From assembly GCF_002073895.1 (NCBI RefSeq), contig NZ_CP012839.1, forward strand, positions 236,013 through 289,409: DNA of 53,397 bases, written 5' to 3'. Positions 16,262-21,528 of this stretch are shown piece after piece. The notes under the pieces are model-generated. The model saw nothing but the letters and a program-made list of their open reading frames with translations. It was not told where the DNA came from and did not search any database. This DNA is from Candidatus Riesia pediculischaeffi. Its GTDB lineage: Bacteria; Pseudomonadota; Gammaproteobacteria; Enterobacterales; Enterobacteriaceae. Each line of letters begins with the position of its first letter. Positions within the stretch are counted from its first letter, which is position 1. The translations under genes and the position numbers were made by a program.

Positions 16262-17201
16262 CTAATACACTTTTCCGATCCTCTCGAAACGAATTCCAGT
16301 AGGCCATTGATGTTCAACTTTGTTCAAACTAAACCAGACCATGGTCACTTTTCCTATCAAATCATCTTCTGAGATTAGACCCCAACTTCTGCTGTCTGAA
16401 CTGTTATCACGGTTATCTCCCATTACGAAATAACTTCTCTTAGGAACGATCCATTGATTCTTTGACATATATCGCTGCTTGTAATGTGATTCCGTATATA
16501 TTCCAGGAATAGATAAAATAGTGTATCCTTTTCTTTGACCGATTTTTTCAACCCTCTCTTCTTGTCTCAAAGAATACTTAGGAGTTTGATCGTATATTGA
16601 TATTCTACGATGACTCTGTTTTTTTTGAGAAAACATGTCGTCCATAAATAAAGTCCATTCGCTTTCCTTCTTTACGGAATAATCGACCGGAATATAAGTT
16701 TTCTGAAGGTCATTCAGGTAGTTTGAAAAAATCTTCAGTTCTTTTTGTCGACAATCGTATATCACTTTATCACCCGGTATTCCTATTATTCTTTTTACGA
16801 AGTTTATTTTACTATCTAAAGGATACTTAAACACCACTATATCTCCTCTTCTCGGTTCTTGAATTCTGAATATGGTAGATTGATCGATAGGGTTGATCAA
16901 TCGATAAGAAAATTTTTTCACCAATATGAAATCTCCAACTAAAAGTGATGGAATCATGGAACCTGATGGAATTTGAAAAGGTTCATACAAAAAAGAACGA
17001 AATAAAAAAGTAGAAATTAGAATAGGAAACAATGAGGCAAGAGAGACAAGATAGGAGTGTCTATATGATATGATTCTCTGTACTATATTTATAAATTTTT
17101 TTTTTAAAAAGATTTTTCATAGATATCACGTTGAAAAACAACCAAAGTATTCCGCTTACGATCATTAAATTGTTGAAAAAATTAGAAAGAATCTCTGACA
17201 T
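16262..17201 (-). CDS. lepB: signal peptidase I, split by an A10 tract
   Basis: LepB cleaves signal peptides at the periplasmic face of the inner membrane. The main frame carries FLYEPFQIPSGSM with the catalytic Ser, RGDIVVFKYP, FVKRIIGIPGD with the catalytic Lys, and FVMGDNRDNSSDSR. The true N-terminus is ATG 17201, behind AGGAG, and encodes the first membrane span (NNLMIVSGILWLFF). That frame ends at TAG 17061-17063. An A10 run (plus-strand T run 17096-17105) lies where both frames are open. Reading nine A's joins them into KNLFKKKFINIVQRIISYRH and on to the second span. This fits transcriptional slippage. The first ATG is 12 bases after the lepA stop. Total length is about 310 against 324. 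Confidence 0.9.
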
Positions 17202-17213
17202 ATATCTCCTCAT

Positions 17214-20631: not shown

Positions 20632-21528
20632 ATGCTTCGTAAAAACTCAAAAAAAGTATTTTTTTTTAAAAATATAGGCGTCGTCGGTCGAATCAAACAT
20701 CCATCAGTTTTAAAGACTTTTAAAAATCTTTGTATTTGGTTGAACAGAAAAAACTACCACGTAATGATCGAAGATGATTTAACTGATCATTTAAAATATG
20801 ATAAAGGGATCATTTTCAGCGATATTCACGAAATAGGGAAACAAGCAGATCTAATTGTTGTGATAGGAGGGGATGGGAGTATGTTGAATGCCATGAGAAA
20901 ATTTTCTAAATATGAACAAAAAATTATTGGAATCAACCATGGAAAGTTAGGGTTCTTAACTGATTTGAATCCAAATCATGTATTGAATCAACTATCTAAA
21001 ATATTAAACGGTTCCTTCTTCCAAGAAAAAAGATTTTTGTTAGATGTACGAGTCGATAAGAAAAAAAAAAAGATGTTCAACAATCAAGCTATTAACGAAA
21101 TCTCCTTCAATTCTTGTAAGATAAAGAATATGATTGATTTCGAAGTTTTCATCGATAGAAATCTAGCCTTCTTTCAAAGATCTAATGGTCTCATTATATC
21201 AACTCCAACTGGATCTACGGCACACTCCCTTTCCATCGGAGGTCCAATATTAACTCCAAACCTAAATGCGATTTTGTTAGTTCCAATTTTTCCACATTCC
21301 ATTTGTTTTAGACCGCTTCTAATTCATGGAAATAGTCGTATTAAATTGAAAATAAAAAGTCAAAGTAACCATCAAGAAATTAATTGCGATGGACAAATCG
21401 TACATTCCATCCATTATGGAGATGAGATATTGATCAAAAAGAGTAACTATACAATCAACTTGTTACATCCAAAATATTTTGATTACTTTAAAAATCTGAA
21501 AAATAAGTTGGGTTGGGGAAAATTTTAA
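20632..21528 (+). CDS. nadK: NAD kinase
   Basis: NadK phosphorylates NAD+ to NADP+ using ATP. The GGDGSMLNAMR motif (GGDG signature) and IIGINHGKLGFLTDL are clear. NEISFNSC, RSNGLIISTPTGSTAHSLSIGGPIL and FPHSICFRPLLI also match. I start at ATG 20632 because AAGGAAA lies just upstream and family similarity begins soon after; the open frame extends upstream without a match. Length 298 against 292. Together with nadE it completes the end of NAD(P) synthesis. Confidence 0.93.
   Translation: MLRKNSKKVFFFKNIGVVGRIKHPSVLKTFKNLCIWLNRKNYHVMIEDDLTDHLKYDKGIIFSDIHEIGKQADLIVVIGGDGSMLNAMRKFSKYEQKIIGINHGKLGFLTDLNPNHVLNQLSKILNGSFFQEKRFLLDVRVDKKKKKMFNNQAINEISFNSCKIKNMIDFEVFIDRNLAFFQRSNGLIISTPTGSTAHSLSIGGPILTPNLNAILLVPIFPHSICFRPLLIHGNSRIKLKIKSQSNHQEINCDGQIVHSIHYGDEILIKKSNYTINLLHPKYFDYFKNLKNKLGWGKF

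What the first reader, a model, noticed from the sequence alone, without database searches (positions are those of the whole stretch)
17061..17201. lepB split at an A10 tract: candidate transcriptional slippage
The correct LepB N-terminus (first membrane span) is encoded from ATG 17201 behind AGGAG but runs into TAG at 17061. The rest is in the +1 frame. The frames overlap across an A10 run (17096-17105). Removing one A yields a complete LepB. Rescue of endosymbiont genes by RNA polymerase slippage at poly(A) tracts is documented in Buchnera and Blochmannia. Signal peptidase I is normally essential, so some rescue is expected.
Basis: partly seen in the sequence, partly recalled or inferred. 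Interest (0 to 1): 0.72.

Follow-up and report, generated by a model that had tools for sequence, protein, structure and literature searches.

The report
Signal peptidase gene split at poly-A
In a chimpanzee-louse symbiont, the gene for the enzyme that trims exported proteins is broken across two reading frames near a run of ten A's, and similar breaks recur in many aphid-type symbionts, which suggests that slippery RNA copying of the A-run keeps the gene working.

Summary
Strain PTSU has the same split (its tract is A11, deduced from two overlapping protein fragments). R. pediculicola lepB is intact. The PTSK assembly is indel-prone: 18 of 202 compared genes change frame internally, rpoC, rho and fusA among them, and many junctions resemble the Illumina adapter; the lepB junction does not. 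The main new result is comparative: lepB is split at an A9-A15 run in the same TM1-TM2 linker in 13 of 36 and 8 of 11 species of two Buchnera-type genera, plus two other symbionts. One nine-species split clade keeps TM1 under purifying selection (pN/pS 0.40, against 0.90 and 1.25 in shifted frames). Breaks occur in both directions, which favours RNA-polymerase slippage over -1 ribosomal shifting. Slippage itself was not seen: no RNA or protein data. This kind of rescue is known in Buchnera and Blochmannia; its recurrence in lepB was not found in the papers I could search.

The parts
17206..17210 (-). Shine-Dalgarno-like AGGAG before lepB
17061..17201 (-). lepB frame 1: first membrane span (TM1) and start of the linker, 46 aa, ends at TAG
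   Evidence: 55% identical over its first part to R. pediculicola LepB; near-identical 46-aa prediction P0121 in the 303,941-base contig
17096..17105 (-). A10 run (A on the lepB strand), proposed slippage site
   Evidence: inside the frame overlap
17061..17116 (-). overlap of the two open frames (56 nt)
16262..17116 (-). lepB frame 2: rest of linker, second span and catalytic domain
   Evidence: PF10502 over cut-off; NF008114 and TIGR02227 over cut-off, E. coli signal peptidase structures matched along 10-255
16958..16960 (-). codon of the Ser in PSGSM that aligns with the E. coli nucleophile region (catalytic role recalled)
   Evidence: alignment
16793..16795 (-). codon of the Lys in FVKRIIG that aligns with the E. 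coli general-base region (catalytic role recalled)
   Evidence: alignment
17030..17032 (-). TTG, the only ATG/GTG/TTG in frame 2 before the second span; candidate internal start, no SD-like sequence seen before it

Best explanation
lepB is a working gene that is out of frame in the DNA. RNA polymerase slips on the A10 (A11 in strain PTSU), so the mRNA pool holds tracts of several lengths; a fraction is in frame and gives full-length LepB with both membrane spans, and the rest gives a 46-aa TM1 peptide. The unconserved, lysine-rich cytoplasmic loop between the spans tolerates A-runs whose length drifts in and out of frame, and slippage buffers the loss. Shown: the split, the tract, the same split in two strains, recurrence at the same place in other symbionts, and retained selection on TM1 in one split clade. 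Inferred: slippage, its efficiency, full-length protein, and that the A10 is the site in Riesia.
For: Two strains share the split; the PTSU tract is fixed as A11 by its two overlapping translations. The LepB fragment is 100% identical between strains over the 256-residue query, while the short linker before it differs at two places. Split at an A-run in the same linker: 13 of 36 species of genus g74 (A9, A10, A12, A15), 8 of 11 of genus g45 (seven A10, one A11), G010 (A11) and by eye G018. 23 of 23 resolved splits have a run of 9 or more in the overlap, in five of them the overlap is only 16 nt; 8 of 31 intact genes have such a run nearby. Nine split species form one supported clade (100/99) in which TM1 has pN/pS 0.40 in its own frame against 1.25 and 0.90 in shifted frames, and the catalytic part 0.32. 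In 60-kb samples, G392 proteins flag 2 of 52 genes in split genome G178: lepB and one gene at a masked stretch, and 0 of 51 in G258. Breaks of both directions occur (17 rows D 2, 6 rows D 1, Riesia D 1), as expected of polymerase slippage. Published precedent: 12-50% corrected transcripts in symbionts (PMC5009743, passage), about 30% (PMC3017870, passage); insertions in A/T runs rise exponentially with run length in Buchnera (PMC5574713, passage).
Against: No RNA or protein evidence. PMC5574713 states that no transcription error restoring a reading frame was detected in Buchnera (passage), and that deletions in runs, the kind needed in Riesia, are rarer than insertions. Alignment puts the Riesia switch past the A10. 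The species rows are related: on the tree only 4 independent pairs on well-supported branches exist, b agreeing in about 2.4 and opposing in 0, not significant. In genus g45 the TM1 contrast is weak (pN/pS 0.48 own frame, 0.57 and 0.75 shifted). tblastn missed the lepB split in G258, so the background census can also miss breaks near gene ends, and one other A9 break was flagged in G392. The PTSK assembly contains many doubtful indels.
Confidence: 0.65

Rival explanations
1. Assembly error: the true Riesia lepB is in frame, and the break is one of the indel errors of this assembly.
For: 18 of 202 compared genes change frame internally in 253 kb of PTSK, rpoC, rho, fusA, rpsA and cysS among them (names are my reading). 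7 of 16 scored junctions resemble the TruSeq adapter core at p<0.05, against at most 5 for any of 60 shuffles, that one nearly the adapter itself. The lepA break is in both strains, so artefacts could recur.
Against: The lepB junction is not adapter-like. PTSU has the same frame relation although its tract differs by a substitution. Similar breaks recur in many separately assembled symbionts, two of which show hardly any other break in 60 kb.
Confidence: 0.15
2. LepB has become a single-span enzyme made from an internal start in frame 2; TM1 is a vestige.
For: G088 and G275 have no TM1 candidate. One source predicts a 283-aa protein from the second frame in PTSU (P0001). Bacillus-type signal peptidases with one span exist (recalled).
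Against: Riesia offers only TTG 17032 before the second span, without an SD-like sequence, and it would cut into that span. Over 23 split rows 11 have an in-frame ATG, 8 only GTG or TTG and 4 none before the catalytic part. TM1 stays under selection in the nine-species split clade.
Confidence: 0.08
3. Ribosomes, not RNA polymerase, change frame on the A-run.
For: A-runs are known ribosomal slippery sites; in 17 of 23 split rows the second frame is the -1 frame. Reporter constructs with 7, 9 and 11 A gave 10, 40 and 63% frameshifting (PMC3711429, passage), where transcription and ribosome effects are hard to part.
Against: Riesia and five other rows need the +1 (or -2) frame, which the common -1 shift does not reach; both directions occur in one genus.
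Confidence: 0.08
4. lepB is a dead or dying gene in Riesia pediculischaeffi.
For: lepB looks broken in more than one place in G006, G033 and G157 (by eye); PMC11188193 lists lepB with an asterisk among genes lost in Phyllaphidinae Buchnera (passage).
Against: 100% identity between strains over 256 residues; full catalytic domain with family scores over cut-off; conserved split genes elsewhere under selection. Signal peptidase I is essential in E. coli (recalled).
Confidence: 0.04

Closest known systems
Transcriptional slippage rescue of frameshifted Buchnera and Blochmannia genes at poly(A) tracts (original 2008 report recalled, not held; described in PMC5009743 and PMC3017870, passages)
   Same: AT-rich insect symbiont, essential-looking gene broken at a run of 9 or more A, no decay of the gene, break sometimes shared between species
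   Different: There mixed transcripts were measured; here none could be. The passages name other genes (such as dnaX, dnaG, pth, erfK, ytfM), not lepB; here one gene is hit again and again in the same linker
dnaX programmed transcriptional slippage (PMC3711429, passages)
   Same: A-run of 9 to 10 yields two products from one gene
   Different: dnaX makes two useful subunits; for lepB no use of the short TM1 peptide is known
Citrobacter rodentium tssM, interrupted gene rescued by transcriptional frameshifting (PMC4256274, search listing and abstract start only)
   Same: Interrupted membrane-protein gene rescued by transcriptional frameshifting
   Different: One gene in a bacterium that is not an obligate symbiont

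Membership tests
Bacterial signal peptidase I (LepB) | catalytic domain above curated cut-offs | tested here: met
   frame 2: PF10502 151.7 bits (cut-off 22.9); NF008114 289.4 (277) and TIGR02227 147 (47); PDB 1t7d E 7e-64
Bacterial signal peptidase I (LepB) | Ser and Lys of the catalytic dyad at the aligned places | tested here: met
   PSGSM and FVKRIIG align with the E. coli chain; that these are the dyad is recalled
Bacterial signal peptidase I (LepB) | both N-terminal spans in one open frame, as in R. pediculicola | tested here: not met
   spans lie in different frames; R. pediculicola 313 aa intact
Poly(A) transcriptional slippage genes of symbionts | run of 9 or more A inside the overlap of the two frames | tested here: met
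   A10 in a 56-nt overlap
Poly(A) transcriptional slippage genes of symbionts | break shared by strains or species without decay of the gene | tested here: met
   PTSU; clade of nine split species
Poly(A) transcriptional slippage genes of symbionts | mRNA tract lengths broader than DNA, with in-frame transcripts | not testable with these tools
   no RNA reads at hand
Poly(A) transcriptional slippage genes of symbionts | full-length protein | not testable with these tools
   no proteome at hand
Programmed -1 ribosomal frameshifting | second frame is the -1 frame | tested here: not met
   Riesia needs +1 or -2 (D 1); it is met in 17 of 23 split rows
Adapter-related assembly artefact | junction resembles the Illumina adapter core | tested here: not met
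   score 4.0, background p 0.92 at both candidate sites; full adapters p 0.41 or more

The most novel reading that the evidence does not exclude
The TM1-TM2 linker of signal peptidase I is a convergent, long-lived transcriptional-slippage site in obligate insect symbionts: whole clades keep lepB permanently out of frame at an A9-A15 run and decode it statistically, so that the dose of LepB is set by the length of the run.
Probability: 0.42. Interest if true: 0.75.

Novelty: new member of a known kind. Interest (0 to 1): 0.6.

Why it matters
If true, an essential membrane enzyme is expressed, for the lifetime of whole symbiont clades, from a gene that is broken in the DNA. The relatives give a natural series of tract lengths (A9, A10, A11, A12, A15; in and out of frame) on which slippage in living symbionts can be measured. 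It also matters for annotation: several LepB proteins in the databases start inside the second span (P0084, P0102, P0104, P0115), and P0115 is identical to the second frame of the split gene in G409, so an active gene can be taken for a truncated or lost one. And the PTSK assembly should be checked before its other frame breaks are read as gene loss.

Tried and rejected
Considered a genome-wide +1 decoding system in Riesia, because some broken essential genes have a stop at the junction (cysS, lepA). Rejected: breaks go in both directions, and many junctions look like sequencing adapter. Considered GATC-linked indels; GATC is common (7.3 per kb) and not over-represented, and the adapter core fits the sites.

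Rows dropped or changed. Internal frame changes (more than 20 residues from both ends) number 18 of 202. The adapter test used 16 of these; I left out p9923 (a weak 121-aa ORF) and p99170, which one search shows to be another likely A11 split. The first census flagged 14 of 203 by a cruder rule and missed lepA and lepB. The reverse comparison flagged 2 of 210. Fisher's test was first run with 9 of 31 intact rows, then with the recounted 8 of 31. Of 60 rows, 23 are split, 31 intact, 4 could not be anchored (G018, G246, G371, G164) and 2 have no TM1 (G088, G275); G018 is called split by eye only. The rows are all species held of genera g74 and g45 plus chosen loci, not a random sample. The 20 small-genome loci, by eye: 2 split at an A-run, 1 without TM1, 2 otherwise broken, 15 intact. 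The 20 loci, chosen partly for short frames: 5 split, 1 otherwise broken, 1 without TM1, 13 intact. The g45 TM1 count was misaligned and is replaced. A paper search for E. coli LepB without its first span gave nothing that I used. No structure prediction was run.

Full report
Identity. The window lies in a 571,864-base assembly of two contigs. The larger, 566,667 bases, has the size given for Riesia pediculischaeffi PTSK, GCF_002073895.1 (PMC12175528, passages). The other genome of the genus, G099 (574,389 bases), has the size of R. pediculicola USDA (same table: 574,390). Both are louse symbionts.

The observation. On the minus strand lepA is followed by lepB and a ribonuclease III gene (rnc, my reading). 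lepB starts at ATG 17201 behind AGGAG, reads a hydrophobic first span and stops at TAG 17061. The catalytic part is in the next frame, open from 17116 to 16262. The 56-nt overlap holds A10 at 17105-17096. The second frame passes family cut-offs and aligns along the E. coli enzyme. R. pediculicola has an intact 313-aa lepB with an in-frame A11 in the same linker. Riesia sp. GBBU has a 306-aa LepB (P0065).

Is it a sequencing error? A 303,941-base contig, the N50 contig length of strain PTSU (Illumina, 120-150x; PMC4232544, methods and results sections), carries a 46-aa N-terminal and a 283-aa C-terminal prediction. Both translations together fix its tract as A11. So the frame relation is the same although the tract differs by a substitution. 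Against this stands a warning. Aligning 202 R. pediculicola proteins to 253 kb of PTSK gives 18 genes with an internal frame change, rpoC, rho, fusA, rpsA, cysS and pgk among them (names are my reading of the sequences). Seven of 16 scored junctions resemble the TruSeq adapter core at p<0.05; 60 shuffled cores reach at most 5. The PTSU methods section describes quality trimming and no adapter removal; how PTSK was sequenced I did not find. I think many of these breaks are assembly artefacts. The lepB overlap shows no such resemblance. The lepA break, in both strains, may be either.

The comparison that decides. Family-wide searches showed symbionts whose catalytic LepB frame is too short to include TM1. 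Reading the DNA showed TM1 in another frame, with an A-run of 9 or more in the overlap, in the same cytoplasmic linker: 8 of 11 species of genus g45, 13 of 36 of genus g74, G010 and, by eye, G018. All 23 splits resolved by script have the run in the overlap, against 8 of 31 intact genes with one in the region (Fisher p 7e-9). Because species are related the tree matters: intact and split need at least 8 changes on the best tree and at least 4 by well-supported branches, while a strict independent-pairs test has too few pairs to decide.

Function retained. In the nine-species clade of split genes (support 100/99) TM1 has pN/pS 0.40 in its own frame and 1.25 and 0.90 in the others; the catalytic part has 0.32 at 74-89% identity. 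So TM1 seems to be read and selected although no DNA frame joins it to the enzyme. In g45 the contrast is weaker (0.48 against 0.57 and 0.75). In 60-kb samples, proteins of intact G392 flag 0 of 51 genes in G258 (its lepB split escapes tblastn) and 2 of 52 in G178, lepB and one at a masked stretch; the reverse comparison flags one other A9 break in G392 (1 of 48). Frame breaks are rare there and lepB is a special place, though not the only possible one.

Mechanism. In 17 of 23 split rows the second frame is the -1 frame, in 6, Riesia among them, the +1 frame, and both kinds occur in g45. Polymerase slippage yields both; the usual -1 ribosomal shift only the first. Corrected transcripts of 12-50% are reported for symbionts (PMC5009743, passage) and 30% (PMC3017870, passage). 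Insertions in A/T runs rise steeply with length in Buchnera, but the same study detected no restored frame, and deletions in runs were rarer than insertions (PMC5574713, passages). An internal start is unlikely as a general answer: of 23 split rows 11 have an ATG in the second frame before the catalytic part, 8 only GTG or TTG, 4 none. I read the linker as a place where A-runs are tolerated and drift, with slippage buffering in-frame and out-of-frame states alike.

Novelty. Searches of the held papers: Buchnera with lepB and frameshift, 0 papers; Buchnera with lepB, 8 papers, one passage seen; wider searches whose listings show no title about lepB slippage. The mechanism is a known kind; the gene, its recurrence and its long life in a clade are what I have not seen described.

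Noticed in passing
window 41462 (cysS), 23341 (efp), 17390 (lepA), 7111 (rlmN); genome C2 near 166269, 133804, 374277, 331745 and others: 18 of 202 compared genes (lepB included) change frame internally in this assembly, several of them in genes that should be indispensable; many junctions resemble the Illumina adapter core. Probably assembly artefacts.
   Followed up: partly
window 17390: lepA ends at 550 aa instead of 607 in R. pediculicola, and in strain PTSU too.
   Followed up: partly
window 21061-21071: An in-frame A11 inside an ORF that looks like NAD kinase (my reading), where slippage would lower the yield of an intact gene.
   Followed up: no
genome C2 near 427611 (L220): A 452-aa R. 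pediculicola protein (p99170) is split near its start at an A11 run in this genome: a second slippage candidate.
   Followed up: partly
L159 (G088) and L272 (G275): lepB without any TM1 candidate; the frame begins near an ATG followed by an A10 run. G275 has the contig length of a Donacia fulgens symbiont record.
   Followed up: partly
L278 (G371): A run of 27 A in the lepB linker, read in frame.
   Followed up: no
L303 (G405): A15 in the split lepB linker, the longest run among the split genes.
   Followed up: no
L144 (G006), L149 (G033), L267 (G157): lepB looks broken in more than one place by eye, so some lineages may be losing it.
   Followed up: no
P0084, P0102, P0104, P0115: LepB proteins predicted to start inside the second span, as expected when a split TM1 frame is overlooked.
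   Followed up: partly
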